A stretch of DNA of 63,987 nt from Gammaproteobacteria bacterium (lineage in GTDB: Bacteria; Pseudomonadota; Gammaproteobacteria; SZUA-229), in NCBI GenBank assembly GCA_029882215.1, contig JAOULC010000018.1, positions 1 through 63,987 on the forward strand, in the 5' to 3' direction. Position 1 is the first letter of the stretch, and the number at the start of each line of letters is the position of its first letter. The notes beneath the pieces were generated by a model. That model did not search any database and was not told the DNA's origin. It saw nothing but the letters and a program-made list of their open reading frames with translations. Positions 50,248 through 63,288 of the stretch are shown piece after piece. The translations under genes were made by a program, and so were the position numbers.

Positions 50248-51609
50248 ATGTACTTAAAGCATTTTGGTTTAGAACGCTCACCTTATAAGATAACGCCAGA
50301 TACCAGCCTGTTTTATGAGGGAGGCAATCGCGGTGCCGCGCTGGAAGCGATTAAATATTCGATTTTACAAGGCGAAGGCATTATTAAAGTGGTGGGCGAG
50401 GTTGGCAGTGGCAAAACCATGCTCTGTCGTATGCTCGAAGTACGCCTGCCTGATTATGTTGAGATTGTCTACCTGGCCAATCCCAGCTTATCCCCTGAAA
50501 AAATTCTGCATGTCATAGCAATGGAAATGAAGCTGCCTGTAGCTCAGGACGATGACAAGGCTAAAGTGATGCAAATGCTGCAAGACTACCTCTTAGAGAT
50601 ACATGCTAAAGGCCGTCAGGTTGTGGTCTTTGTAGAAGAGGCGCAGGGCATGCCACTAGAGACACTGGAAGAGATCCGGCTATTAACAAATCTTGAGACA
50701 GGCCAGTTTAAAATGCTGCAAATCGTGCTTTTTGGTCAGCCAGAGTTGGATGAAAATCTTGGCAAAAGGCAAATTCGGCAACTAAAAGAACGGATATCAC
50801 ACCACCTGTCGCTGGATACTTTTGACAAGAAGGACATCCAGAGTTATCTGAATTTTCGCTTACGCGCCGCTGGCTTTAAAGGGGCTGACCTGTTCAGCCA
50901 GAAACTGGCCGGAATGATCGCAAAGTACTCAAAGGGATTAACCCGAAGAATCAATATTCTGGCAGACAAGGCACTGCTGGCAGCATTTGCTGATAATAGC
51001 GAAGAAATAAAACCAAAGTATATAAAACTAGCGGCGAAAGATAGTCAGTATATCGCACTGGAACTTCCTGTCTGGGCAAAAGTAGGAGTAGTTCTGATGG
51101 TTATGGCAATGCTGATGAGCCTGGGCTGGGTGGTGCGAGGTTTTGAGATAGAGCAGAAGATAGAGAGTAATACTCAAGTAATCAGTGATAAAAATGATGC
51201 AAGTGACGGAAATAAAAGTAATTTATCCCTGCGGTTTAATGGAAAAGAGCAGGTTGCCAGTCTAAACTCAGAAGCTATGAGCCTTTTATTGCAAAAAAGG
51301 CTTAAAAGAACGGCTTTGTGGTTACGGGATAATGCAGAGAGTCGGTATTCTATACAACTCCTGTTACTTGATGAAACAAGAATGACAGCTCTGGATTCAT
51401 TTTTAAAGAGGATGAAAGAACAGGGGTTGATTGAAGATACCTATGTCTATCTGGTTACGAAAAACAACCAGCTGGTTTATGGCGTCTTATATGGCGGCTT
51501 TAGACAATACAGTGATGCGATAAAGGCGATCAGTAAACTCAGCCAAGTGCTGAAAGTGAATAAACCGTTTGTAAGAGATATGCAAAGTATATCAACAGAA
51601 TATATCTGA
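50248..51609 (+). CDS. mshM: MshM-like AAA ATPase with C-terminal SPOR-like domain
   Basis: The 453-residue protein belongs to the ExeA/MshM family: start MYLKHFGLERSPYKITPD, Walker A GEVGSGKT at 50-57, Walker B VVFVEEAQ near 127-134, and an AAA helical region to about 265. A membrane helix follows (about 274-296), then a periplasmic domain whose last 95 residues (YSIQLLLLDE ... LVYGVLYGGFRQYSDAIKAI) look like a SPOR peptidoglycan-binding domain. ExeA-type proteins help assemble secretins through peptidoglycan. First gene of the pilus operon, 63 bases after the trmL-side start region. Confidence 0.88.
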   Translation: MYLKHFGLERSPYKITPDTSLFYEGGNRGAALEAIKYSILQGEGIIKVVGEVGSGKTMLCRMLEVRLPDYVEIVYLANPSLSPEKILHVIAMEMKLPVAQDDDKAKVMQMLQDYLLEIHAKGRQVVVFVEEAQGMPLETLEEIRLLTNLETGQFKMLQIVLFGQPELDENLGKRQIRQLKERISHHLSLDTFDKKDIQSYLNFRLRAAGFKGADLFSQKLAGMIAKYSKGLTRRINILADKALLAAFADNSEEIKPKYIKLAAKDSQYIALELPVWAKVGVVLMVMAMLMSLGWVVRGFEIEQKIESNTQVISDKNDASDGNKSNLSLRFNGKEQVASLNSEAMSLLLQKRLKRTALWLRDNAESRYSIQLLLLDETRMTALDSFLKRMKEQGLIEDTYVYLVTKNNQLVYGVLYGGFRQYSDAIKAISKLSQVLKVNKPFVRDMQSISTEYI

Positions 51610-51629: not shown

Positions 51630-53216
51630 ATGATGAATAAGCTGATAATAATCATAATGCTAACGGTCTTAATGAGTGCATGCGCGCCATCGAAATCACC
51701 GGTTAATGTAAAAGGCCATATTAATAAGCAGGTCATCAAGCCCGTACAGGATAATATACCCGAGCTTGTAAACGAGGCGCCGGTATTACCGCCACCGCGT
51801 ATGACGGCAAAAACTGAAACTTATACCGTTGTGGTTAATGATGTGGATGTTTCTTCATTGTTGTTTGCTCTGGCTCGGGACGCAAAGTTAAATGTCGATA
51901 TCTTTCAGAATATCAATGGCAAAGTGACACTAAATGCGATTGATCAGACATTACCACAAATCTTAGACAGGATAGCTGAGCAGTCGGATATCCGCTACAA
52001 AGTAATGGATGGACTACTGGTCATTCGCCCGGACCTGCCGTTCTTCAAAACGTATAAAATAGAATATGTGAATATTGACCGCCAGACGAAAAGTCAGAAC
52101 CTTATTTCAACCCAGATTGCCTCGGCAGGTTCAGCAGGTAAATCCGGCAATGCGGGCAGTAGCGGAAATAACTCCCTGACCTCGGTTGAAAGTGAAACCA
52201 ATAATGCGTTCTGGAAAACACTGACCAGCAACCTTTCAAAGTTCATTGAACAGGAAGATAGTGAAGGTAATAAAGAAGACGCGGCTCTTTCAAAAAATAT
52301 TCTAGTGAATAAAGAAGCGGGTTTTATCACAATAAAAGCCAGTGAAAAAGAACACAACAAAATACAGGCTTATATTGACCTGGTATTAAACAGTGCGAAA
52401 AGACAGGTTCTGATAGAAGCAACAATAGCTGAGGTAAGTCTGAGTGATAAGTTTCAGTCCGGAATAGACTGGAGTACGGTCAGCAATAGCGGCAACACAA
52501 ACTTCAGCCAGAACTTAACAGGGGCAAATCTGGGTAGTGCGCCATTTTTTACTGCAACATATAACAGCAGTTCATTAACAGCGTCAGTAAAAATGCTGGA
52601 AGAGTTCGGAAAAGTGAAAGTATTATCAACGCCGAAAGTAATGGCTATTAATAATCAGACCGCTATTTTAAAAGTGGTTGATAACCGTGTGTACTTCTCT
52701 ATCGGTGTGGATGCAACCACAGACAGCAACAGTAATACAACGAAAACCTTCACCACAGAGATCCATACTGTGCCTGTAGGAATTGTTATGCAGGTGACGC
52801 CTTATGTCAGCGCTAAAGACGAAGTTACATTAAATATCAGACCGACAATATCAAGAATCATTAATTTTGTTGAGGATCCAAATCCTGAGTTAGCGAGAGA
52901 AAATGTCATCAGTGAAGTGCCTGAAATACAGGTCAGAGAAGTCGAATCGATACTTAAGGTTAACAGCGGTGATGTGGCTGTTATCGGTGGATTAATGCAG
53001 GATACCGTAGATGAAAGTGACTCGACAGTACCGTTTCTTGCCGCCATACCTATAATCGGCCAGCTATTTAATTATTCGGATGACAGTCATACTAAAACAG
53101 AGCTGGTTATTTTTATCCGGCCTAAAGTCATAAAACATGCGGATATAAATACTGACCTTGCTGACTTCAAGTCGCACCTTCCACAGTTTGAAAGCGAAAC
53201 AGACAGGGCAAGGTAA
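51630..53216 (+). CDS. mshL: MSHA-type secretin MshL
   Basis: The 528-residue outer-membrane secretin starts with a lipoprotein signal (LMSACAPSK, lipidated Cys about 18). It has a secretin/TonB short N-terminal domain (about 60-140), a Gly/Ser-rich linker and a C-terminal secretin domain (about 255-510) containing RQVLIEATIAEVSLSD, VKVLSTPKVMAINNQTA and VAVIGGLMQDT. It forms the pilus exit channel. It starts 20 bases after mshM. Confidence 0.93.
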   Translation: MMNKLIIIIMLTVLMSACAPSKSPVNVKGHINKQVIKPVQDNIPELVNEAPVLPPPRMTAKTETYTVVVNDVDVSSLLFALARDAKLNVDIFQNINGKVTLNAIDQTLPQILDRIAEQSDIRYKVMDGLLVIRPDLPFFKTYKIEYVNIDRQTKSQNLISTQIASAGSAGKSGNAGSSGNNSLTSVESETNNAFWKTLTSNLSKFIEQEDSEGNKEDAALSKNILVNKEAGFITIKASEKEHNKIQAYIDLVLNSAKRQVLIEATIAEVSLSDKFQSGIDWSTVSNSGNTNFSQNLTGANLGSAPFFTATYNSSSLTASVKMLEEFGKVKVLSTPKVMAINNQTAILKVVDNRVYFSIGVDATTDSNSNTTKTFTTEIHTVPVGIVMQVTPYVSAKDEVTLNIRPTISRIINFVEDPNPELARENVISEVPEIQVREVESILKVNSGDVAVIGGLMQDTVDESDSTVPFLAAIPIIGQLFNYSDDSHTKTELVIFIRPKVIKHADINTDLADFKSHLPQFESETDRAR

Positions 53217-53218
53217 GG

Positions 53219-54655
53219 ATGAGTCTGTTACTAGATGCACTAAAAAAAGCGGCGGAAGAAAAGGAAAAAAAAGATTCCGATAAGCAGGATAATGCTTCCA
53301 CCGAGCAAAAGGAAGAAGTGTATACACATGAAGTTGATGAAGGCTTTTTACTAGATGAGCGGGTTTCAGCTGCTGGCGATAATAAAACGGTTGCTATTGA
53401 GGAGCCTGCAGAAGAAGTCTTTGATCTGGAGTTGCCGGAAGATGTTCCTATAACGGACGATTACCCTGTAACAGAAGACAGTCCTGCAACAGAAGATTAC
53501 TCTGTAACAGAACACTCTTTAGCAGATGACAGCTCTGTAACAAAAGATTTAGCAGAAACTGAAACTGTTGTAGATAAGAGCACAGAGAAAGAAGCAGCAA
53601 AGCATGAGGAGATGCCAAAGACGGCATTAACAGATGCGGTTGTTAGAAAAACAGAAAAAAAAGAGAGCAGTCAGGTGCAGGCTGAACATGACCTGACTAG
53701 CTATGATCATAAAGATGCAAGAAAAATTCTCGAAGTGACACAGAAACGCTATCGAAATAATCAGCGAATAGCCTATTACGGAATGTATGTATTTGCCACT
53801 ATTTTATTTTTTACCGGTAGCTATTTGTATTATACGGCCGAGGTGCTGGATAACTCTGACAAGCCTGTTTTTAAAACAAAAAACAAAATAGCTTCGCAAC
53901 CGAAAACTGAAATAGAAAAGAAAATCGAAGAGCAGGTATTAATTGCTAAAGCAAAGCTTGCAGTAGTGGATGACAGCGAAGAAAAAAATGTCACAATGGC
54001 GGTTGTTCCTAAAGCAAAAAAATTAATAAAACCGGTTAAGATAGAACAGTCAATTACAATTACAAGTCAAAAGAGAGAAGACCCTCTTTCACTGATACTG
54101 CAGAGAGCCTACAAATATTATCAGTCCGCTGAATACAAACAGTCTGACGAATTATATCAGGCAGTGTTGTTGCGTGATGAAAAACAGAAAGATGCATTAT
54201 TAGGCCGGGCTGCCATTGCCGTGGTGAATAAAGACTATGCGTTGGCAAGACGGTTTTATCAGCAGCTACTTCACTATTTTCCCAGAGATAGTATTGCCAG
54301 TTCAGCATTAGTTGATCTTAATCGTCAGGAAGTGACCTCGGCGAATGAGAGTCAGCTAAATATTTTGTTAGAAGATAATCCTAAAGCCGCTCATGTTTAT
54401 TTCAGTCTGGGTTTGCTATACGCAAAGCAGCAGCGTGTAAAAGAATCACAACAGGCATTCTTTGAAGCGTATGCACTCGATAAAAAAGCAGATTATGCCT
54501 ATAACCTGGCGGTGATGCTGGATAAGCTGGGACAGACTAAAGCGGCACTCAGCTATTACCGTCTGGCATCAACATTATCGGACAAACATGCATCAAATTT
54601 CAATGAAAAATTTGCGCTGGAACGCATAGCTCAGCTGGAGATGGGTAATGAGTAA
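53219..54655 (+). CDS. mshN: MshN-like TPR protein
   Basis: The 478-residue protein starts MSLLLDALKKAAEEKEKK, a typical N-terminus of pilus/secretion assembly proteins of this class. An acidic linker rich in Asp/Glu/Thr (about 40-145), one membrane helix (about 184-206) and periplasmic TPR repeats (about 290-470, for example YYQSAEYKQSDELYQAVL, AHVYFSLGLLYAKQQR) follow. It links the cytoplasmic ATPase to periplasmic parts. Its end overlaps mshE by 8 bases. The acidic linker contains short tandem 18-base repeats (53462-53548). Confidence 0.82.
   Translation: MSLLLDALKKAAEEKEKKDSDKQDNASTEQKEEVYTHEVDEGFLLDERVSAAGDNKTVAIEEPAEEVFDLELPEDVPITDDYPVTEDSPATEDYSVTEHSLADDSSVTKDLAETETVVDKSTEKEAAKHEEMPKTALTDAVVRKTEKKESSQVQAEHDLTSYDHKDARKILEVTQKRYRNNQRIAYYGMYVFATILFFTGSYLYYTAEVLDNSDKPVFKTKNKIASQPKTEIEKKIEEQVLIAKAKLAVVDDSEEKNVTMAVVPKAKKLIKPVKIEQSITITSQKREDPLSLILQRAYKYYQSAEYKQSDELYQAVLLRDEKQKDALLGRAAIAVVNKDYALARRFYQQLLHYFPRDSIASSALVDLNRQEVTSANESQLNILLEDNPKAAHVYFSLGLLYAKQQRVKESQQAFFEAYALDKKADYAYNLAVMLDKLGQTKAALSYYRLASTLSDKHASNFNEKFALERIAQLEMGNE
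53462..53548 (+). repeat. Five 15-18-base tandem repeats in the mshN acidic linker
   Basis: Units read YPVTED, SPATED, YSVTEH, SLADD and SSVTKD: four 18-base units and one of 15, in frame. They lie in a low-complexity acidic linker and suggest expansion by replication slippage without frame loss. Confidence 0.75.
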
Positions 54656-56393
54656 TGGCGAGCAGCTGGAAGTAAGCGAGGCAGAAAGACGCTCTGCACC
54701 ATTAGTAAAGCAAAAGCGTCTGGGTGATGTATTAATCGACAAGGGTCTGATCACGTTAGACCAGTTGAAAATCGCTTTAACAGAACAAAAAACAAATAAT
54801 ATACCGATTGGTAAGATGCTGGCGGCATTAGGCTTTGTGACAGAGTCGGTGATTCGTGATGTCTTAGGTGAAACGCTGGGACATGAGTCAGTTGATCTGT
54901 CACAAATTGTACCGGACCCGGAGGCACTTGCGCTGGTGACAAAAGATCTGGCGATTCAGTTACAACTAATACCACTATTGTATTTTAAAGACACCGAAGA
55001 GCTAACGGTTGCGATGACCGATACGATGGATCTGGTAGCGCTGGACCGCTTACGGGCTGTGGTAGGTGTCAATGTCGAAATCAAAGCGAACCTTGCGGTC
55101 GAATCTGAAATACAGTCTGCAATTGATAAGTTTTATGGTTATGAGCTGTCTGTCGATGGCATATTAAATGAATTAGAAACCGGTGTTATTGATTTAAAAA
55201 GTCTGCAAACTGGAGATACAGAGTACAGCCAGCCGATTGTACGCCTGATGAATGCGATTCTTGCTGATGCGGTTAAGTCAGGGGCATCGGATATTCATAT
55301 CGAGCCGGAGGAAGGGTTTATCCGGGTTCGCTACCGGATTGACGGAGTGCTGCGACAAATTCGCAGTCTGCATCGTAAATTTCTTTCCGCGATCGTGGTG
55401 CGGATAAAGGTCATGGCGGATATGAATATCGCCGATACCCGTATCGCACAGGATGGCCGTATATCACTGGGCATCAGTGGCCGCAGTATCGACTTCAGGG
55501 TTTCTTCGCAGCCGACTACCTGGGGAGAGAATCTTGTGCTGCGTGTTCTCGACCGGCAGAAAGGCATCGTCGAAATGAAAAATATGGGCCTGCGTGACGA
55601 TATGTTAATGCGGCTACAGATTATGATGTCACGGCCGGAAGGAATACTGCTGGTTACAGGCCCAACAGGTAGCGGAAAAACAACAACACTGTATTCAATG
55701 ATTACGGAAATTAACAGCCCTGATATTAATATCATGACACTTGAAGATCCGGTTGAATATCCGTTACCAATGATCAGACAGACATCGGTTAATGAAGCCG
55801 CTAAACTCGATTTTGCAACCGGTATCCGTTCAATGATGCGACAGGATCCCGATGTCATATTAATTGGTGAGATTCGAGATCAGGATACCGCAGAGATGGC
55901 GATGCGAGCGGCAATGACAGGTCATAAAGTGTTTTCAACACTGCATACAAACTCAGCTATCGGTATATTTCCCCGCTTAATGGATATCGGAATATCGGCA
56001 GAAATACTGGCTGGTAATATCATCGGTGTAGTCTCGCAAAGATTAGTACGACAGTTATGCGATCAGTGCAAAAAAGCAAAAACCGTGGACGCAACGGAAA
56101 GACAGTTACTTGGCTTTGCTGCTGAGATAGAAACAATATATGAGGCGGAAGGCTGCAGTAGCTGTAACTATATCGGCTATAAGGGCCGATTTGCCCTGAT
56201 GGAAGTGTTAAGGATGGATGTTGATCTTGACGAAATGATTGTGAATAAAAAGAGCATGAATGAGTTCAGACAGGCGGCGATTGATAAAGGCTTTGTGAGT
56301 ATTCAGGATGATGCGGCCAGGTGGGTCGCCGACGGGCGCACGAGTATTGACGAAGTCACGCGCGTAATAGACTTCACTGGTCGTCTGATATAG
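54648..56393 (+). CDS. mshE: Pilus extension ATPase MshE with c-di-GMP-binding motifs
   Basis: The 581-residue GspE/PilB-family ATPase has an N-terminal MshEN domain with two tandem RLGxxL-type motifs (KRLGDVLIDKGLITLDQLKIAL from residue 23, and PIGKMLAALGFVTESVIRDVL from 53), the c-di-GMP-binding element described for Vibrio MshE. Walker A GPTGSGKT is at 338-345, Walker B ILIGEIRD near 405, the His box follows, and a zinc site uses Cys471, Cys474, Cys503 and Cys506. It powers pilin polymerisation, probably gated by c-di-GMP. It overlaps mshN by 8 bases and precedes mshG by 4 bases. Confidence 0.95.
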   Translation: MSNGEQLEVSEAERRSAPLVKQKRLGDVLIDKGLITLDQLKIALTEQKTNNIPIGKMLAALGFVTESVIRDVLGETLGHESVDLSQIVPDPEALALVTKDLAIQLQLIPLLYFKDTEELTVAMTDTMDLVALDRLRAVVGVNVEIKANLAVESEIQSAIDKFYGYELSVDGILNELETGVIDLKSLQTGDTEYSQPIVRLMNAILADAVKSGASDIHIEPEEGFIRVRYRIDGVLRQIRSLHRKFLSAIVVRIKVMADMNIADTRIAQDGRISLGISGRSIDFRVSSQPTTWGENLVLRVLDRQKGIVEMKNMGLRDDMLMRLQIMMSRPEGILLVTGPTGSGKTTTLYSMITEINSPDINIMTLEDPVEYPLPMIRQTSVNEAAKLDFATGIRSMMRQDPDVILIGEIRDQDTAEMAMRAAMTGHKVFSTLHTNSAIGIFPRLMDIGISAEILAGNIIGVVSQRLVRQLCDQCKKAKTVDATERQLLGFAAEIETIYEAEGCSSCNYIGYKGRFALMEVLRMDVDLDEMIVNKKSMNEFRQAAIDKGFVSIQDDAARWVADGRTSIDEVTRVIDFTGRLI

Positions 56394-56397
56394 ACCG

Positions 56398-57606
56398 ATG
56401 GCAAATTTCAAATACAAATCTATAGACGAAGAGGGGCAGCGGGTAAACGGCACGATTGTGGCCGATAATATTGAAGACTTAGATCTGCAATTAAGAAAGG
56501 TCAAGCTTGAACTTATCTCTGCAAAGCAAATAGATGAAAATACATTTTTAAAATCGACAGGAATCCGTGCGCTGTCGAGAAAAGAAAAGATAATCTTTAC
56601 ATTTCAGCTCGGCCAGTTACTCAATGCCGGTGTGCCGTTGCTGGAAGGACTGGCTGATTTAAGAGACAGCTTTCCCGAAGTTCATATACAGGCATTATTG
56701 TCAGCGTTACTCGAATCAATCGAAGGTGGTGAAAGCCTTTCAGTGGCAATGAATAAATTCCCAGCATCATTTGATAGTGTATATGTAAACCTGATAGAGG
56801 TTGGCGAACAGAGTGGTGAACTTGATAAAGTGCTGCAAGAACTGGAAGAAATGCTCAAATGGCAGGATGAGCTGCGCGCACAAACAAAGCAGATCATAAT
56901 GTATCCGGCGATTATCGGTGGCATTATGATACTTGCTTTTGTAGTGCTAATGATTTCTGTCGTGCCACAAATGCTGTCTTTTATGAGTCAGTTTGACAGC
57001 GAGTTACCGTTCTACACGGTTGCTTTACTGGCGGTTTCAGATTTCATGCAAAACTACTGGTATGTTGTACTGATTATGCCGGCAATCGTTATAGTAGCCG
57101 TAAAATATGCAGCGCATAAGTCTTACAGTTTTCGATATATACTTGATAAATACAAGCTTAAGCTATGGTTAGTCGGCCCAATTATGCAGAAAATAAAACT
57201 GGCCAGATTCAGCAATAATTTTGCACTAATGTATAAAGCGGGCATTACGGTACTTGAGTCGTTAAAAGTCAGTAAAGGACTACTTGGTAATGTTGTGCTG
57301 GAACAGGCAATTGATGAAGCACATGAGAAAATATCTGAAGGAGAAATGATATCTGTTGCAATTGCGAATACAAATGTATTCCCGCCATTGGTGGTAAGAA
57401 TGTTTAAGATTGGTGAAACCAGTGGTGAGCTGGATGTATCACTGAAGAATGTAAAATATTATTTCGATCGTGAAGTTAAAGAAGCACTGGCTACCATAGA
57501 GCCTGTATTGCAACCGGCGCTGATATTATTTCTGGCACTGATCCTTATCTGGATACTGGCCGCTGTATTTGGGCCTATTTACGACACAATCGGAACATTA
57601 AGGTAG
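56398..57606 (+). CDS. mshG: Inner-membrane platform protein MshG (GspF/PilC-like)
   Basis: The 402-residue protein has two GspF domains (FTFQLGQLLNAGVPLLEGL at about 62-80, and ARFSNNFALMYKAGITVLESL at 264-284), each with the following GEQSGELD / GETSGELD motif. Three membrane helices lie at about 172-192, 218-236 and 375-397. It is the pilus assembly platform on which MshE acts. Confidence 0.95.
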   Translation: MANFKYKSIDEEGQRVNGTIVADNIEDLDLQLRKVKLELISAKQIDENTFLKSTGIRALSRKEKIIFTFQLGQLLNAGVPLLEGLADLRDSFPEVHIQALLSALLESIEGGESLSVAMNKFPASFDSVYVNLIEVGEQSGELDKVLQELEEMLKWQDELRAQTKQIIMYPAIIGGIMILAFVVLMISVVPQMLSFMSQFDSELPFYTVALLAVSDFMQNYWYVVLIMPAIVIVAVKYAAHKSYSFRYILDKYKLKLWLVGPIMQKIKLARFSNNFALMYKAGITVLESLKVSKGLLGNVVLEQAIDEAHEKISEGEMISVAIANTNVFPPLVVRMFKIGETSGELDVSLKNVKYYFDREVKEALATIEPVLQPALILFLALILIWILAAVFGPIYDTIGTLR

Positions 57607-57610
57607 TTAT

Positions 57611-59173
57611 ATGCGTCAGGTTTTTTTTATAACAGATGACCGAATGACTGTAATGCTGTGGCAAGGCCTTCATCTGGTGTCGAGATATGCGTTTGAAGAC
57701 GATCAGTTGGCCGAACTGTCAGAATATCTTGAAAGTAGCAAAGAGATAACAGCATCAGTAGTGATTGACGTCCTGGAAGAAGAAATAACACTCACCAGTA
57801 TACCGCATGTAAGTGCCCGGGAAAGAAAATTCCTGATAGACAGAGCACTGACTCGCCTGCATCGTGGTACTGAGTTTGCTACAGCGAATATAGTCGGCCG
57901 GGATAATAACAGACGTCGTGATGACCGCTTACTTGTATCCGGCATGACATCGAGCCGGCCGTTATTAAAGTGGCTTGATTTACTCAATCAACACAGTGTG
58001 CATATTAAGGGTGTCTATTCTCTGCCCTTAATCAGCGGCCATGTGCTTAAAGCACTTAAAATCAGTAAAGGACTTACATTGCTGGTAAGTCGCCAGTCAC
58101 GAAATTTTATTCGTCAGAGTATATTTAAAGACGGCAGACTGATATATAGCCGGAATATTCCATCATCACAAAACCTGAATATAAAAATGTTTTCTGCCGA
58201 CCTGAAGAAAACAAAAAAATACCTTGAAAATCAGAAATTAGTTAATGCAGAAGACAGGGTAGATGTACTGGTACTTGCCAGTAATCGTTTCTTTACGCAG
58301 CTAGAAGGACTTGATGAGCTCTTGCCCGACATGAATATTTCCTATGTTCGGCACGACAGTATGAAAAGCACATTAGGTATTAAATCTGATTTGAGTATAT
58401 CCGGTCAGGAAGTGTTCTCGTCACTCTTATTGGGATCAATGACAAAAAATCACTACGGACGTGAAAATGATCTGGCTTGCTATAACAGGAAAATACGCGA
58501 GAAATGGATAAACTATTCATCAGTTTTAGCTGCTGTTCTGTTGATATTCGTCACGGCGGTTTTTTATATTGATATAAATGTTATCGAGCAAAAAGTAGAC
58601 GGAGTTGAAGAACAGCTTAAAATACTAAAGTTACATAATGACAGGCTTGAAAATAATCTGTCTAAGTTACCTGCTAAAGCTGAACAAATGAAACTGTTTG
58701 TAAATAATATTGACGATATAGAGCAGGCTGCAAGATCAGGCTTAGACAGCTCACTGATAGTGATCAGCCAGGTGCTGAGTGCGTATGAAAATATTTCACT
58801 ACAGAGCCTGAGCTGGAGTGTGAACGAGGCTGTTCAGAAGTCTAAAAGTAAAGCAGTAGCTGCTAATAGAAGAAAAAATAAAGTTGCCGGCTCAAAAATA
58901 AACCCACAGTCAATCGCTAAAGTTAGTCATGTGGTTGAGCTGACGGCTAGTGTGAATTTAGCTGTTAACACAAATGAACAATCAGCGGAGTTGCTGAATA
59001 ATTTTATAACCGCCATAAAAAATATAAAATCAGTACATGCTGTTAACGTGACAAAGCATGCAATAAAGTCCGGCTCTACTGAGACAATGACAGGTGTTTT
59101 ATCAGGCAAAGCGAATGATAAGTCTGAACTCTCGCTCACACTGATTATCGGGGGTGCCGATAATGAAGGCTAG
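57611..59173 (+). CDS. MshI-like PilM/PilN fusion protein
   Basis: The 520-residue protein has an N-terminal cytoplasmic region (1-280) that resembles the actin-like PilM/GspL fold, a membrane helix (about 296-315) and a periplasmic part with a coiled coil and a ferredoxin-like C-terminus (PilN-like). Such fusions occur as MshI in MSHA systems. It forms the inner-membrane alignment complex. The identity is from position and architecture, since sequence conservation is low. It overlaps the following gene by 11 bases. Confidence 0.7.
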   Translation: MRQVFFITDDRMTVMLWQGLHLVSRYAFEDDQLAELSEYLESSKEITASVVIDVLEEEITLTSIPHVSARERKFLIDRALTRLHRGTEFATANIVGRDNNRRRDDRLLVSGMTSSRPLLKWLDLLNQHSVHIKGVYSLPLISGHVLKALKISKGLTLLVSRQSRNFIRQSIFKDGRLIYSRNIPSSQNLNIKMFSADLKKTKKYLENQKLVNAEDRVDVLVLASNRFFTQLEGLDELLPDMNISYVRHDSMKSTLGIKSDLSISGQEVFSSLLLGSMTKNHYGRENDLACYNRKIREKWINYSSVLAAVLLIFVTAVFYIDINVIEQKVDGVEEQLKILKLHNDRLENNLSKLPAKAEQMKLFVNNIDDIEQAARSGLDSSLIVISQVLSAYENISLQSLSWSVNEAVQKSKSKAVAANRRKNKVAGSKINPQSIAKVSHVVELTASVNLAVNTNEQSAELLNNFITAIKNIKSVHAVNVTKHAIKSGSTETMTGVLSGKANDKSELSLTLIIGGADNEG

Positions 59174-59756
59174 AGCATCTAAATATAATATTCTGTTGGC
59201 CAGTTCAGTGGTGGTTATAACAGCGACTGTGATCTGTATTCTTTTTTATCAGAGCTATAACGAAAAATATAACAACTATATGAGCCTTAATAACCAGCTG
59301 AAAAGTGAATCAAGGCGATTTACAAGGCTCGACGATATGAGCTCGCTGGTCGCGTTATATGAAGAAAAGTTTAATCAGTATATGCCGGTTAAACAATACG
59401 AAGATGAAAACAGACTGTATTTTCTTGATTCGCTGGAGAGGATACGACTGCAACATAAAGTACCCGCGCTCAGTTATTCTATCAGTGCCAGAAAACCTTA
59501 TGACTATAAAGACGGAATTATTAAGGAAAAAGGTCTCAAGGTATCGGTATCAGATATTGAACTTAAAATGAGCCTGATGCATGAAGGAGATTTATTAGAT
59601 GTTGTCGCCAGTATAAAACAAATAAAAAAATCTGTTCATATTGTCACGGCCTGCCAGCTAAGTCGAATCGGCTCGGCCGCAGTGAGAGACCGTTCATCAG
59701 GACCGAATATTGATGCACTGTGCAATATTAAGTGGTTTACCTTTAAGGTTAGTTAA
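59163..59756 (+). CDS. MshJ/PilO-like pilus assembly protein
   Basis: The 197-residue protein has one membrane helix near the N-terminus (about 10-30), a coiled coil (about 35-70) and a C-terminal beta/alpha domain, the layout of PilO/GspM/MshJ. ATG 59163 was chosen since GGGGG precedes it at about eight bases. It overlaps the PilM/N-like gene and is followed directly by the next gene, so it forms part of the same inner-membrane complex. Sequence identity is not strong, so the call depends on context. Confidence 0.65.
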   Translation: MKARASKYNILLASSVVVITATVICILFYQSYNEKYNNYMSLNNQLKSESRRFTRLDDMSSLVALYEEKFNQYMPVKQYEDENRLYFLDSLERIRLQHKVPALSYSISARKPYDYKDGIIKEKGLKVSVSDIELKMSLMHEGDLLDVVASIKQIKKSVHIVTACQLSRIGSAAVRDRSSGPNIDALCNIKWFTFKVS

Positions 59757-60167
59757 ATGATAAAAGTCACTTTGTTAATTTCTATATTGTGCATAGGCAG
59801 TAATGCTGCATTTGCCGAACAAAGTTTACGCCGGTTGTTTTTCTCTCCGGCAGAGCGAGCGTTGATGGATATTAAAGATCAGGTGGTTAAAAAGACACCG
59901 CAAGCTAAATCTGCGCCATTGCCACAAACTGAAACGATTGAAGTAAAAGGTTATTTAAAACGCAGCGACCAGCCCGATGTCGTCTGGATTAATTCTAAAA
60001 ATACACTTAAATCGAACCGGCCCTTGGCTGATGTAAAAGTGCTGGCTGTTCAGCCAGGTGGTAAAGTAAAACTGAATATTCGAGGCAAAGGTGTCGTTAG
60101 ATTAAAGCCGGCGCAGCTTGTTACGCGTAGCAAGACAGCTATACGAGAAGCGTATGAAAGCAAATAA
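59757..60167 (+). CDS. MshK/PilP-like periplasmic assembly protein
   Basis: The 136-residue protein has a signal peptide (cleavage near AAFA) and a small basic beta domain including VKGYLKRSDQPDVVWINSKNT, a pattern seen in MshK/GspC/PilP-type proteins that contact the secretin. Its stop overlaps the next gene by 14 bases. Its role as link between the inner complex and secretin MshL is inferred. Confidence 0.65.
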   Translation: MIKVTLLISILCIGSNAAFAEQSLRRLFFSPAERALMDIKDQVVKKTPQAKSAPLPQTETIEVKGYLKRSDQPDVVWINSKNTLKSNRPLADVKVLAVQPGGKVKLNIRGKGVVRLKPAQLVTRSKTAIREAYESK

Positions 60168-61749
60168 AACTAAAATACATAAGCTAAAAGCCATCAGACA
60201 AAACGGTGCCGCGTTGCTGATTGCCATGGTTGTGCTGGCATCTGTAGCAGCATTTTATTTAATGGGCCAGTTTGGTGCTGTTTCGCAAAAACAAATTCGT
60301 CAGGATAATCGGGTTGCCTCATTGGCCGAGGCAAAGAAAGCATTGATTGCCTATGCGGTAAATTATATCGATTCAAATGCAGGAGAAATGGCTTTTTTAC
60401 CATGTCCAGATCGTAGTGCGGGTGGTTTCAGTGAGGGCATTCAGGACGGGGTTTGTGAAGCTACTAACGTTAATACAATAGGGCGTTTTCCCTGGCGAAG
60501 CCTTGATCTGGCTCCACAATATGACGAGACCAATGAGTGTCTCTGGTATGCGGTTTCTGGCTATTATAAATCGAATCCAAAAACGCAAATGTTAAATGAG
60601 GATACCAATGGTCTGTTCAGTATTTTTAATGCGCAGGGGAACCTTATTTATGGGAACTCACCAGAGGACAGGGTAGTTGCTGTTATCATTGCACCCAATG
60701 TTCCGATACAAGCTCAGGACCGTAGCACCGTTGCTGGCACAGAGCGATGCAAAGGAAATTATACAATTGCCAATTACCTTGACAGGGATGCTGCCACTTT
60801 AATAGATAATAGTAATCTGTCTGTCGCTGCCGATACAACGGATGATTTTATTAAAGCGGGAACCAATAGTACTTTTAATGATTTATTGCTTACCATTACG
60901 CGTGATGAAATATGGAGCGCGGTAAAGCGCAGGCGTGATTTTACGACCAGCATTCAAACTCTGGCAAATAATATAGCGCAATGCGTCGTCGCCTATGGTA
61001 ATGACACGCCAGTGGCTGGTCAGCCCAGCTACTTGCCCTGGCCGGCAGAGGTAGATCTGTCGCTGGCAGATTACAGAATTGATGCCAGTTATGTTGATGC
61101 GATTCCGTCTACTTCTTTACTGGGGCGGCTGGCTGATGATGTGAGTAACAGCCAGTTGGCACTGGATAGCAACAGTTTCGTCGCTGGAGGGGCGGCCAAT
61201 CTGAGAGCTTGTAAAAAGCAATGTCAGACAGAGTTTAATGCGTGTAAAAAATCATGCAAAGGCAAAACATGTAATGATGCTTGCCAGATTCAAAGAGATG
61301 ACTGTAATGCTGCATGTTCAGCAGGTGGCACTCCTGTTCCCACTGCGCGTAAATCAATTGATAACGTCATCACCAGCTGTCTGATTGAGCCGGATCTGAC
61401 ATTATGGAAACACTGGAAAGATCATTTCTTTTATGTGGTGTCGGGTGCATATCAACCGGACTCGGCTGATGCCAGCTGTGCCGGTGCGAATGATTGCGTA
61501 ACGCTCAATGGTAATGCCACAAAATACCCGGGCATCGTATTTTTTGCCGGAGAAAAGACGGCCACACAATTGCGCAGAGAATCACCGGATGCGGATACCA
61601 AGCAGAATATTATTAATTACTTAGAAGGCAATAACGCTGCTAACTACCCTGATGCCGCGGGCAATAAAGACTATGATTCAACGCTGACGTCCGATGTGTT
61701 GTATTGTATTTCAGAAGGCCCGCCGTTATCTGCCGCGCCTTGTCCATAA
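60154..61749 (+). CDS. Large pilin-like protein with LPCPD region and twin CX3C arrays
   Basis: The 531-residue protein (ATG 60154, with GAGAAG upstream) has an N-terminal helix NGAALLIAMVVLASVAAFYL resembling minor pilins/PilX, though the Gly-Phe-Thr-Leu-Ile-Glu cleavage motif is not present. EAKKALIAYAV and FLPCPD follow, a pattern shared with the next gene. Residues 353-388 hold eight cysteines as two copies of C-X3-C-X6-C-X3-C separated by four residues, predicted to form disulfide-bonded helical hairpins. It is probably exposed on the pilus tip or surface. I know no named family for the whole protein. Confidence 0.75.
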   Translation: MKANKTKIHKLKAIRQNGAALLIAMVVLASVAAFYLMGQFGAVSQKQIRQDNRVASLAEAKKALIAYAVNYIDSNAGEMAFLPCPDRSAGGFSEGIQDGVCEATNVNTIGRFPWRSLDLAPQYDETNECLWYAVSGYYKSNPKTQMLNEDTNGLFSIFNAQGNLIYGNSPEDRVVAVIIAPNVPIQAQDRSTVAGTERCKGNYTIANYLDRDAATLIDNSNLSVAADTTDDFIKAGTNSTFNDLLLTITRDEIWSAVKRRRDFTTSIQTLANNIAQCVVAYGNDTPVAGQPSYLPWPAEVDLSLADYRIDASYVDAIPSTSLLGRLADDVSNSQLALDSNSFVAGGAANLRACKKQCQTEFNACKKSCKGKTCNDACQIQRDDCNAACSAGGTPVPTARKSIDNVITSCLIEPDLTLWKHWKDHFFYVVSGAYQPDSADASCAGANDCVTLNGNATKYPGIVFFAGEKTATQLRRESPDADTKQNIINYLEGNNAANYPDAAGNKDYDSTLTSDVLYCISEGPPLSAAPCP

Positions 61750-61770
61750 ATTAATCAAGAAATTTTGAAA

Positions 61771-62493
61771 ATGAAAAATAATAAGCCATGCGGTTTTACT
61801 CTGATAGAAATGTCTATAGTGCTCATTGTCATTAGCCTGATACTGGCAGGTGTGCTGAAAACCGTGGGTGTACAACGTCAGCAATTAAAGCGTGATGAAA
61901 CACGTCAGCAACTGGAAACAATTCGAGAAGCATTGATTGGTTTTGCATTAACCAGTGGACGACTGCCTTGTCCCGATACAGGTATTGATGGGCTGGAAGA
62001 TTTTAATGGTGGAGCTTCTGGACCACCACCACAGGATTGTTTAAATGATGAAGGTTGGGTGCCACATGTCGATATTGGTGTAGGAAATAGAGATGCGTGG
62101 GGAAGCCGGTTCCGCTATCGAGTTACAGGTACAAACGATGCACCTATTAATAGTTTTACAGATGATCCTATAGCGCCTGCGATATCAAGTTTTAGTGTGG
62201 CGGATGTTGGAGATATAACAGTGAATGATGAAGCCGGTAATAGTATCGCCTTAGGGATACCAGCTATAGTAATTTCCTATGGTGAGAATGCAAGGGCGAC
62301 ACCAGTTGGGTGTACAACTGGATTGAGTGCGAGCGAGATTGAAAACTGTGACAATGAGACAACAAGTACAAACTCTACTTTCATCAGTAGTTTCTACAGT
62401 AATGTAACTAATCAAGAGTTTGATGATCTCGTTATCTGGATACCCCTGACTATACTCAAAGCCAGAATGATCGAAGCCGCGTTATTACCATAG
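61771..62493 (+). CDS. Type IV prepilin-like protein
   Basis: The 240-residue protein has a short leader ending in Gly and the prepilin motif G|FTLIEMSIVLIVISLILAG, with cleavage after Gly10 counted from 61765 (Gly8 from ATG 61771) and Glu at +5. The body has REALIGFAL ... RLPCPDTG and a GWVPHVDIG ... DAWGSRFRYRVTG segment typical of large pseudopilins. It is longer than MshA (about 170), so it may be a minor or tip pilin. It is the last gene of the pilus operon in the window. No MshA-like major pilin is present. Confidence 0.85.
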   Translation: MKNNKPCGFTLIEMSIVLIVISLILAGVLKTVGVQRQQLKRDETRQQLETIREALIGFALTSGRLPCPDTGIDGLEDFNGGASGPPPQDCLNDEGWVPHVDIGVGNRDAWGSRFRYRVTGTNDAPINSFTDDPIAPAISSFSVADVGDITVNDEAGNSIALGIPAIVISYGENARATPVGCTTGLSASEIENCDNETTSTNSTFISSFYSNVTNQEFDDLVIWIPLTILKARMIEAALLP

Positions 62494-62523: not shown

Positions 62524-63288
62524 ATGTTTTCATCAATACTCACAATCGCCCGCTACAGTTTATTAGAAGCTGTGCGCGGTAAAATTATCTGGATCGTTAC
62601 TGCATTATTAATTTTATCGGTATTGCTGGCTATGTTTATCAGTCAAACGGCATTAACAGAAACCCGTGAGTCGCAAGCGGTACTGATGGCAGGTTTTTTG
62701 CGATTGACTTCAGTTCTGGTGATGATTTTCTTTGTGGTGTCGAGTATGGCGCGGGACTTTCAGGATAAATCCATTGAATTATTATTTGCCATTTCAATAC
62801 CGCGTTATCAGGTTTTTCTCGGGAAGTTTGCCGGTTACAGTTTGCTGGCCTTAACAATCGGCATGTTATACGCCACGATACTATTTTTCTATGCCGAAGC
62901 TGCAGCGGTACTGATCTGGTCTTTATCACTTTACTGTGAATTATGTATTGTGGCACTGCTGAGTTTAATATTTATCCTGTCGCTAGAAAACGTGGCGCTG
63001 AGTTTAATGGCAAGCATTGGTATCTACAGTCTGATGCGGTTTATGCCGGCTATTCAAAGTATGGGTGAAGGGCCATTACAGGAAGGGGTGTTTAATCAGC
63101 TTATAAACGGCCTGTTAGATCTGATTGGTTTTTTCTTGCCGCGCTTAGATCACTTTGCACAAAGTGGCTGGCTGCAATCTGCTTCAGCCAGTGGGGTCGA
63201 TGTTTTAAGTTTTATGATTGAATTTATGCTGTTTGTTATTTTATTTGCTGCCGTTGGCATCATTGACCTGAAACGCAAAGCCATTTGA
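62524..63288 (+). CDS. ABC-2-type transporter permease
   Basis: The 254-residue protein has six membrane helices. It begins SILTIARYSLLEAVRGKIIWIV and contains SSMARDFQDKSIELLFAISIPRYQVFLGKF, the signature loop of NatB/ABC-2 permeases that move lipids, polysaccharides or drugs. Its ATPase subunit is not in the window. It overlaps the next gene by one base (TGATG). Confidence 0.82.
   Translation: MFSSILTIARYSLLEAVRGKIIWIVTALLILSVLLAMFISQTALTETRESQAVLMAGFLRLTSVLVMIFFVVSSMARDFQDKSIELLFAISIPRYQVFLGKFAGYSLLALTIGMLYATILFFYAEAAAVLIWSLSLYCELCIVALLSLIFILSLENVALSLMASIGIYSLMRFMPAIQSMGEGPLQEGVFNQLINGLLDLIGFFLPRLDHFAQSGWLQSASASGVDVLSFMIEFMLFVILFAAVGIIDLKRKAI

What the first reader, a model, noticed from the sequence alone, without database searches (positions are those of the whole stretch)
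60154..61749. Tandem CX3C-X6-CX3C cysteine arrays in a pilin-like protein
Eight cysteines at 353, 357, 364, 368 and 373, 377, 384, 388 form two exact copies of one spacing pattern. This resembles paired CX3C helical hairpins such as small Tim proteins. In a surface pilus protein it could be a stable adhesive or redox-locked tip module. I know of no described family with this array.
Basis: seen in the sequence. Interest (0 to 1): 0.62.

Follow-up and report, generated by a model that had tools for sequence, protein, structure and literature searches.

The report
Disulfide-stapled helical hairpin on pilus protein
A large pilin-like protein in a bacterial surface-pilus gene cluster carries a small plug-in module that looks like two short helices stapled together by four disulfide bonds, and related pilus proteins carry other stapled hairpins at the same or another place, so it is probably a hard, exchangeable surface on the pilus.

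Summary
In detail: eight cysteines at residues 353-388 of the 531-aa protein at 60154-61749 have spacing C3C6C3C4C3C6C3C. The interpretation needs changing. The spacing is also a palindrome, and a single-sequence AlphaFold2 model of residues 331-425 gives one antiparallel hairpin (helices 347-367 and 371-391, block pLDDT about 85). That suggests one hairpin with four nested disulfides, not two Tim-like hairpins.

The array is extra to a core of ten conserved cysteines and lies in a variable insert. Of 47 aligned homologues, 35 lack an array and 12 carry inserts with 6-16 cysteines, always an even number: nine at another site (A), three at the window's site (B), two of these being long stapled coiled coils. 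The exact octet occurs only in the window protein.

Closest solved structure: ribbon-worm neurotoxin B-IV (1VIB; profile E 0.0055, the only PDB hit; two shuffled controls missed it).

The cluster is MSHA-type (MshL above cut-off). The protein lacks Glu+5, like pilus-tip cap pilins. Best reading: a modular tip pilin displaying interchangeable disulfide-cored hairpins, probably for adhesion. Hairpin predicted; disulfides, tip position and function inferred.

The parts
60154..61749 (+). Large pilin-like protein P0001, 531 aa; prepilin-like start (Gly18, then AALLIAMVVLASVAAFYLMG, no Glu at +5), ten core cysteines, one extra array
61210..61317 (+). The cysteine array, residues 353-388; proposed nested disulfides C353-C388, C357-C384, C364-C377, C368-C373 (inferred from the palindrome, not measured)
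61192..61254 (+). Predicted helix 1 of the hairpin, residues 347-367
   Evidence: single-sequence AlphaFold2, block pLDDT about 85; same helix at low confidence (346-367)
61264..61326 (+). Predicted helix 2 of the hairpin, residues 371-391
   Evidence: one search gives 374-389 at low confidence
60982..61416 (+). Variable region from core Cys277 to Trp421: 145 aa here, 85-117 aa in 35 homologues without array, 152-284 aa in the 11 others with one; contains insertion sites A (soon after Cys277) and B (about residues 340-400)
50248..51609 (+). AAA ATPase (MshM/ExeA-like by position) with a weak SPOR match
   Evidence: AAA_22 1.2e-26; TIGR03015 below its cut-off
51630..53216 (+). Secretin MshL of the MSHA-type pilus
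   Evidence: TIGR02519 259.5 bits against cut-off 250.2; Secretin PF00263
53219..54655 (+). TPR protein (MshN-like by position)
54648..56393 (+). Extension ATPase with MshE-type c-di-GMP-binding N-domain
   Evidence: NF053729 57.7 bits against cut-off 38; GspE/PilB-type matches below their cut-offs
56398..57606 (+). Platform protein, GspF/MshG type
   Evidence: T2SSF PF00482 4.8e-43
57611..60167 (+). Three genes at the place of mshI/J/K (57611-59173, 59154-59756, 59757-60167); names by position only
   Evidence: ORFs; no family above cut-off
61765..62493 (+). Pseudopilin with a normal GFTLIE start (Glu+5 present)
   Evidence: N_methyl 1.9e-06, T2SSG 0.00026; IV_pilin_GFxxxE 27.5 against 16.3 bits

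Best explanation
P0001 is a large minor pilin of an MSHA-type pilus. On a conserved ten-cysteine core (present in homologues with and without an array) it carries a plug-in module: one antiparallel alpha-helical hairpin whose facing sides are lined with cysteines. The fold is held by four nested disulfides (353-388, 357-384, 364-377, 368-373) instead of a hydrophobic core. Relatives carry the same kind of module in other lengths (6 to 16 cysteines) at site A, or as tandem long stapled coiled coils at site B. The protein lacks Glu+5, like pilins that cap type 4 filaments, so it probably sits at the pilus tip and presents the hairpin outward. There the disulfide core lets the exposed residues change freely while the module stays rigid and protease-resistant. 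Likely role: contact with surfaces, cells or polymers. Shown: the cysteine pattern, its place in a variable insert, recurrence with an even number of cysteines, the MSHA-type neighbourhood. Predicted: the hairpin. Inferred: disulfide pairing, tip position, rigidity and protease resistance, binding role.
For: Octet confirmed. Helices 347-367 and 371-391 at block pLDDT about 85 from sequence alone. Cys of each half fall within a 60-degree arc of an ideal helix (resultant 0.93, p about 0.01; the 34-residue first arms with eight Cys in L020 and L027: resultant 0.88, p 0.0001). Gaps are an exact palindrome in the window (permutation p 0.029) and L014 (0.029), near in L012, L025, L017 (0.028-0.048), L018 and L029 (0.004). 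12 of 12 inserts have an even Cys number. Only 2 of 36 residues of the window array are V, I, L, M, F, W or Y (0.06). 35 of 47 homologues lack an array, and nine of the core Cys stay in the same column in 41-46 of 46 other rows. Two insertion sites in separate groups of the core tree; at site B the short-hairpin window protein lies among the two long-insert rows (sister to L002, 95/67), as if one module had replaced the other. The profile of ten arrays finds one PDB sequence, 1VIB, E 0.0055; two controls with shuffled non-Cys letters miss it. MshL and MshE-type domain above cut-offs. No Glu+5 in 47 of 47, Gly-1 in 47 of 47. DsbB in the genome. Literature: tip complex capped by a subunit lacking Glu5 (PMC10191384, passages); grafted modules, and an alpha-domain inserted in the pilin module of GspK (PMC8179133, passages).
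Against: No Pfam pilin model hits P0001, so the pilin assignment rests on the start sequence and the operon. The full-length model failed (mean pLDDT 34.5, two-row alignment). Foldseek found no significant structural match (best E 2.8). The 1VIB hit is weak, with a 12.8-bit bias term, and the window array alone finds nothing. Palindromy is not significant for L020 (p 0.60), L027 (0.85; no better than tandem), L028 (0.27) or the four halves of L002 and L006 (0.067-0.13). The one-face test is not significant for the first arms of L012, L025 and L017 (about 0.066), the second arm of L017 (0.25) or L028 (0.25, 0.29). Relatives are not independent, so 12 even counts are fewer independent events. 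The exact octet is in one protein only. No binding, localisation or disulfide was measured.
Confidence: 0.55

Rival explanations
1. Two successive small-Tim/alpha-hairpinin-like units: each CX3C-X6-CX3C is its own hairpin with the X6 as turn and two disulfides.
For: The 16-residue spacing unit is exactly repeated in the window; twin CX3C is the small-Tim motif (PMC3759932, passages).
Against: AlphaFold2 runs one helix through each X6. Several homologue arrays fit a palindrome better than a tandem (L014: palindrome distance 0, tandem distance 6; L018 and L029 5 against 11; L020 14 against 18; L027 is undecided, 17 against 17). Six residues leave little room for two helices and a turn (inference).
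Confidence: 0.1
2. Reduced thiol or metal module: the cysteine-lined helices bind Cu(I) or Zn as in Csp copper-storage proteins, giving metal capture on the pilus.
For: Cysteines line one helix face. Csp proteins hold Cu(I) with Cys inside a helical bundle and Csp1 is exported (PMC7558416, passages). Reduced small Tims bind zinc in vitro (PMC3759932, passages).
Against: Csp1 uses the Tat pathway and a four-helix bundle; this protein has a prepilin-like start without twin arginine, and a DsbB gene exists in the genome. Cys number is even in 12 of 12 inserts. No His in the window array and at most two in any.
Confidence: 0.12
3. Purely structural spacer: the hairpin only stiffens or lengthens the protein and has no ligand; sequence drifts because nothing selects the surface.
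For: Length and sequence differ strongly among relatives, and 35 of 47 homologues do without. L065 has a low-complexity Ala-rich insert at a third place.
Against: Even Cys numbers, and in most arrays the helical register, are kept across clades, which needs selection for the fold, though not for a ligand.
Confidence: 0.25
4. A Cys-Xaa-Xaa-Xaa-repeat peptide modified by a radical SAM enzyme (TIGR04117-like).
For: TIGR04117 is listed for P0001 at E 0.067 over residues 317-389.
Against: 13.3 bits against a cut-off of 50; no radical SAM enzyme among the window proteins scanned (not every ORF of the window was scanned).
Confidence: 0.02

Closest known systems
Neurotoxin B-IV of Cerebratulus lacteus (1VIB), a helical hairpin with four disulfides
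   Same: Cys gaps 3,6,2,10,3,6,3 (counted from the alignment printed) against 3,6,3,4,3,6,3 here; two alpha-helices, four disulfides (PMC6410017 section 12; PMC11722136 passages).
   Different: Free animal peptide; here an insert in a bacterial pilin-like protein. Similarity is weak (profile E 0.0055) and probably convergent. The disulfide pairs of 1VIB were not seen in print here.
Acrorhagin I and alpha-hairpinins (disulfide-stabilised helical hairpins)
   Same: Two helices cross-linked by four (acrorhagin I, PMC11722136 passages) disulfides, or four-Cys helix-loop-helix (alpha-hairpinins, PMC11591084 abstract start). Acrorhagin I 6ux5 appears at Z 5.2, 47 aligned, rmsd 3.4, within the background level.
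   Different: Peptides of animals and plants; different Cys number, or one disulfide to a loop.
Modular type IV pilins (PilB, PilC of Streptococcus sanguinis; GspK alpha-domain)
   Same: A functional module grafted onto a pilin and probably shown at the tip; an alpha-domain inserted in the pilin module of GspK (PMC8179133 passages).
   Different: Those modules are vWA, lectin or an alpha-domain; the passages seen mention no cysteine-cored hairpin.
MSHA pilus of Vibrio cholerae
   Same: MshL and MshE-type parts above cut-offs; a TPR gene at the place of mshN.
   Different: Pfam and NCBIfam give no name for P0001; MshI/J/K names are by position.
Unnamed lipoprotein family of another bacterial family (L109 and homologues)
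   Same: Conserved Cys gaps 3,6,3,6 ... 3,6,3,9,3 in L109 and the seven homologues looked at.
   Different: Short lipoprotein-like protein, not a pilin; the two ladders are separated by 38-47 residues.

Membership tests
Modular type IV pilin | Prepilin-type N-terminus (Gly-1, hydrophobic segment) | tested here: inconclusive
   Gly-1 in 47 of 47 and a hydrophobic stretch, but no PF07963 match for P0001 at E 0.1
Modular type IV pilin | Extra module not general to the pilin family | tested here: met
   Array absent in 35 of 47 homologues, present as an insert in 12
MSHA-type pilus cluster | MshL secretin | tested here: met
   TIGR02519 259.5 against 250.2 bits
MSHA-type pilus cluster | MshE-type c-di-GMP domain on the extension ATPase | tested here: met
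   NF053729 57.7 against 38 bits
MSHA-type pilus cluster | Major pilin MshA | not tested
   Twelve type IV pilin starts lie in the assembly; none was identified further
Tip-cap pilin (GspK/PilK type) | No Glu at +5 | tested here: met
   0 of 47 have Glu at residue 23
Tip-cap pilin (GspK/PilK type) | Homology to GspK/PilK | tested here: inconclusive
   No such Pfam or NCBIfam match; family profile finds no PDB chain up to E 10
Small Tim (twin CX3C) | One CX3C on each helix | tested here: not met
   Two CX3C on each predicted helix
Small Tim (twin CX3C) | Match to a Tim family model | tested here: not met
   No Pfam family for P0001 at E 0.1; only GvpH at 0.12 for one of ten arrays
Neurotoxin B-IV family | Sequence homology | tested here: inconclusive
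   Profile of ten arrays E 0.0055; window array alone 0 hits up to E 5
Neurotoxin B-IV-like fold | Two-helix hairpin with eight Cys, four per arm at 3-6-2/3 spacing | tested here: met
   Spacing and predicted helices
Neurotoxin B-IV-like fold | Four inter-helix disulfides | not testable with these tools
   Needs protein; only indirect support (even counts, palindrome)
Alpha-hairpinin | Four Cys, short peptide | tested here: not met
   Eight Cys inside a 531-aa protein
Csp1 copper storage | Tat signal | tested here: not met
   No twin arginine before the hydrophobic segment, by inspection
Csp1 copper storage | Four-helix bundle | tested here: inconclusive
   Two helices predicted for the segment; the rest of the protein was not modelled reliably

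The most novel reading that the evidence does not exclude
In this bacterial order the cap pilin of an MSHA-type pilus is a display scaffold: helical hairpins with a core of disulfides instead of hydrophobic residues are swapped in at two sites, in sizes from three to eight rungs. This would be a bacterial counterpart, reached independently, of the stapled hairpins of animal venoms and plant defence peptides, used to vary what the pilus tip touches.
Probability: 0.33. Interest if true: 0.65.

Novelty: new variant of a known kind. Interest (0 to 1): 0.52.

Why it matters
Modular pilins are known, but the modules in the passages read here are recognisable folds such as vWA or lectin domains. A module whose core is made almost only of disulfides would tolerate nearly any surface sequence, which suits a variable tip (inference). 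It would also extend the disulfide-stapled helical hairpin, known here from animal toxins, plant peptides and mitochondria, to bacterial pili, and it gives a simple, testable set of disulfide pairs.

Tried and rejected
Tandem duplication of one CX3C-X6-CX3C unit: the halves share 5 of 16 residues and 25 of 48 bases. Radical SAM peptide family TIGR04117: far below cut-off. Known domain: 0 Pfam families for P0001 at E 0.1, and only GvpH at E 0.12 for one of ten arrays. PDB relatives of the whole family: none up to E 10; none for P0001 alone up to E 1. Viral contigs: 73 pattern matches, none a relative. Genome-contig scan: 29 pattern matches, one relative, L005, 31% identical, without an array. 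Foldseek against PDB: 38 matches, none at E 0.001. The second look with VIA-align gave 29 of 147 chains at Z 5 or more and none at 8, which is background level; 1VIB was not among the 50 rows shown, which excludes nothing. Full-length fold with a two-row alignment: mean pLDDT 34.5, not used beyond noting that the two helices reappear. Array profile outside the family: 2 of 398 phylum genomes at 0.001, one of them the own genome; 5 of 369 class genomes at 0.01, of which two belong to this family and three (L110-L112, E 0.004-0.007) showed no convincing array in a simple pattern look. The A2 profile does not detect the long inserts of L002 and L006 (no match in G003 or on C112). Literature: no paper describing such an array in a pilin was seen in the listings of five searches (two searches listed 12 of 31 and 12 of 27 papers); of the papers listed there only PMC8179133 and PMC10191384 were opened, as passages.

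Rows dropped: one search kept 70 non-duplicate homologous sequences; the tree used 65 of them (at least 430 aa); the counts used the 47 rows of the clade (support 100/98) that contains the window. Of the 45 of 54 family genomes with a match, not all had their locus fetched. The MAFFT column puts Cys373 opposite the conserved sixth core Cys (46 of 46 rows); I take Cys409 as the true counterpart because L002 and L006 align there. Of the matches to the L109 lipoprotein, seven homologues (L114-L120) were looked at; the weak second match in G804 (L121) was not.

Full report
Observation. The frame at 60154-61749 codes for 531 residues, and the octet C3C6C3C4C3C6C3C is there exactly once, at residues 353-388. 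It was matched in 0 of 20000 shuffles of the protein, and 680 of 1344904 placements of eight cysteines in that span would repeat the outer gaps in this way. The two halves are not a recent duplication (5 of 16 residues, 25 of 48 bases). The same numbers hold for reading the array as a palindrome, because the 16-residue unit is itself symmetric.

Surroundings. The gene lies in a co-directional cluster: an AAA ATPase (50248), a secretin above the MshL cut-off, a TPR protein, an extension ATPase whose N-domain passes the MshE-related c-di-GMP cut-off, a GspF-type platform protein, three unassigned genes at the place of mshI/J/K, P0001, a pseudopilin with a normal start, and an ABC-2 type membrane protein. 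The window is contig C32 of a 3.4 Mb, 144-contig assembly, 98% complete with 4.6% contamination. MshL passes its cut-off once in it; DsbB is present. Its order holds a single family among the genomes held, 54 genomes in 14 genera.

Homologues. A profile of 26 sequences (A1) finds the protein in 45 of 54 genomes of the family (21 of 22 good-quality ones) and, at E 1e-20, in 61 of 369 genomes of the class. It has no Pfam name, and its profile finds no solved structure up to E 10. Ten cysteines form a conserved core: nine are in the same column in 41 to 46 of 46 other rows. The tenth, Cys409, aligns only with L002 and L006, because MAFFT puts Cys373 of the window opposite a Cys that all 46 other rows have just before Trp421; I take Cys409 as the counterpart. 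Gly-1 is present in 47 of 47, and Glu+5 in 0 of 47.

The array is an insert. From core Cys277 to Trp421, 35 of 47 rows have 85-117 residues and two or three Cys. Twelve have 145-284 residues and 8-18 Cys in that segment, two of them core, so the inserts hold 6-16. In 12 of 12 the insert count is even. Nine carry it at site A, soon after Cys277: L012, L014, L017, L018, L020, L025, L027, L028 and L029, from four genera (g3-g6). Three carry it at site B: the window protein, a second locus of the same assembly (L002, contig C112), and L006 from another genome of the genus. L002 and L006 hold about 184 residues with gaps 2,31,10,32,7 or 5 and 2,28,10 or 13,28,5, which look like two long coiled-coil hairpins stapled at base and tip (inference). 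A lone CX3C-X6-CX3C quartet is in 4 of the other 69 sequences (L018, L020, L027, L029), the octet in none. On a tree of the core, site-A and site-B rows fall apart, although the node joining the site-A rows is weak (86/44) and one row without an insert (L016) sits among them, so there was a loss or a second gain. At site B the window protein pairs with L002 (95/67), inside the long-insert rows, as if one module had replaced another. A profile of the short arrays (A2) hits 10 of 54 family genomes at E 0.01; its twelve matches all have the open-frame lengths of these same pilin-like proteins.

Fold. AlphaFold2 on residues 331-425 alone gives helices 347-367 and 371-391 with block pLDDT about 85 (overall mean 65.4). 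The poor full-length run still shows 346-367 and 374-389. On an ideal helix the cysteines of each half lie within 60 degrees (resultant 0.93, p about 0.01). In L020 and L027 eight cysteines over 34 residues keep one face (resultant 0.88, p 0.0001). The first arms of L012, L025 and L017 (p about 0.066), the second arm of L017 (0.25) and both arms of L028 (0.25, 0.29) are not significant. Gap palindromy is exact in the window and L014 (p 0.029 each) and close in L012, L025, L017, L018 and L029 (0.004-0.048). It is not significant in L020, L027, L028 or the four halves of L002 and L006 (0.067-0.85). L014, L018 and L029 separate palindrome from tandem in favour of the palindrome; L027 does not. 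Only 2 of 36 residues of the window array are large hydrophobic ones, so without cross-links the hairpin would have little core. Together this argues for one antiparallel hairpin with nested disulfides.

Comparison. A search of the PDB sequences with the array profile returns one entry even at E 10: 1VIB, neurotoxin B-IV, E 0.0055 with a 12.8-bit bias term. Two controls in which the non-cysteine letters were shuffled, cysteines kept, did not find it (their alignments came out with somewhat different gaps). The window array alone finds nothing. The Cys gaps of 1VIB, read from the printed alignment, are 3,6,2,10,3,6,3. The nemertean toxin review describes two helices (13-26, 33-49) and four disulfides (PMC6410017, section 12 and passages). 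A 2024 paper sets B-IV, acrorhagin I and plant hairpins beside scorpion peptides as cross-linked two-helix peptides (PMC11722136, passages). I did not see the disulfide pairing of 1VIB in print. The similarity is weak and most simply convergent. The small-Tim comparison fails on the number of CX3C per helix.

Elsewhere. The array profile found one further case at E 0.001 in 398 phylum genomes, a lipoprotein-like protein (L109, E 4.9e-4). L109 and the seven homologues looked at keep the gaps 3,6,3,6 and, after a linker of 38-47 residues and one more Cys, 3,6,3,9,3. So cysteine ladders of this spacing occur in at least one other unnamed bacterial protein family.

How it may work. Type 4 filaments start from a tip complex capped by a pilin lacking Glu5 (PMC10191384, passages). 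Large minor pilins with grafted modules are likely tip-exposed, and GspK has an alpha-domain inserted in its pilin module (PMC8179133, passages). P0001 lacks Glu5, is large, and carries a helical insert, so a tip position is a reasonable inference. It is not proof: no homology to GspK was found, and PF07963 does not match. The hairpin would be oxidised on export by the Dsb system and shown at the tip. Adhesion or ligand contact is the most likely use because modules vary in size and place between related bacteria while their fold-defining features are kept; a pure spacer is the strongest rival.

Verdict. The pattern is real; the two-hairpin Tim analogy is corrected to a single four-rung hairpin; and the array is one version of a recurrent, variable insert. 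This is a new variant of a known kind (modular pilin with a new sort of module).

Noticed in passing
L004 (G000:C112:1-7827): Second syntenic copy of mshE (partial)-mshG-I-J-K-P0001-pseudopilin-ABC2 (partial) in the same assembly, 43-86% identical by aligned piece. MshL passes its cut-off only once in the assembly and contamination is 4.6%, so C112 may come from a related strain.
   Followed up: partly
L109:1477-1932 (-) and L114-L120: Unnamed lipoprotein-like family (0 Pfam families for L109 at E 0.05) with a conserved double cysteine ladder (gaps 3,6,3,6 ... 3,6,3,9,3) in eight of the eight sequences looked at.
   Followed up: partly
L065: A homologue with 215 residues between the Trp421 and Cys442 columns, containing a low-complexity Ala-rich insert with no extra Cys: a third insertion place in the same protein family.
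   Followed up: no
L012, L025 (site A inserts): The cysteine hairpin is followed by long Asn-Gly repeats (GNNGNN type), perhaps a flexible linker.
   Followed up: no
window 62524-63288: ABC-2 type membrane protein directly after the pilus genes, also kept (cut by the contig end) in the C112 copy.
   Followed up: no
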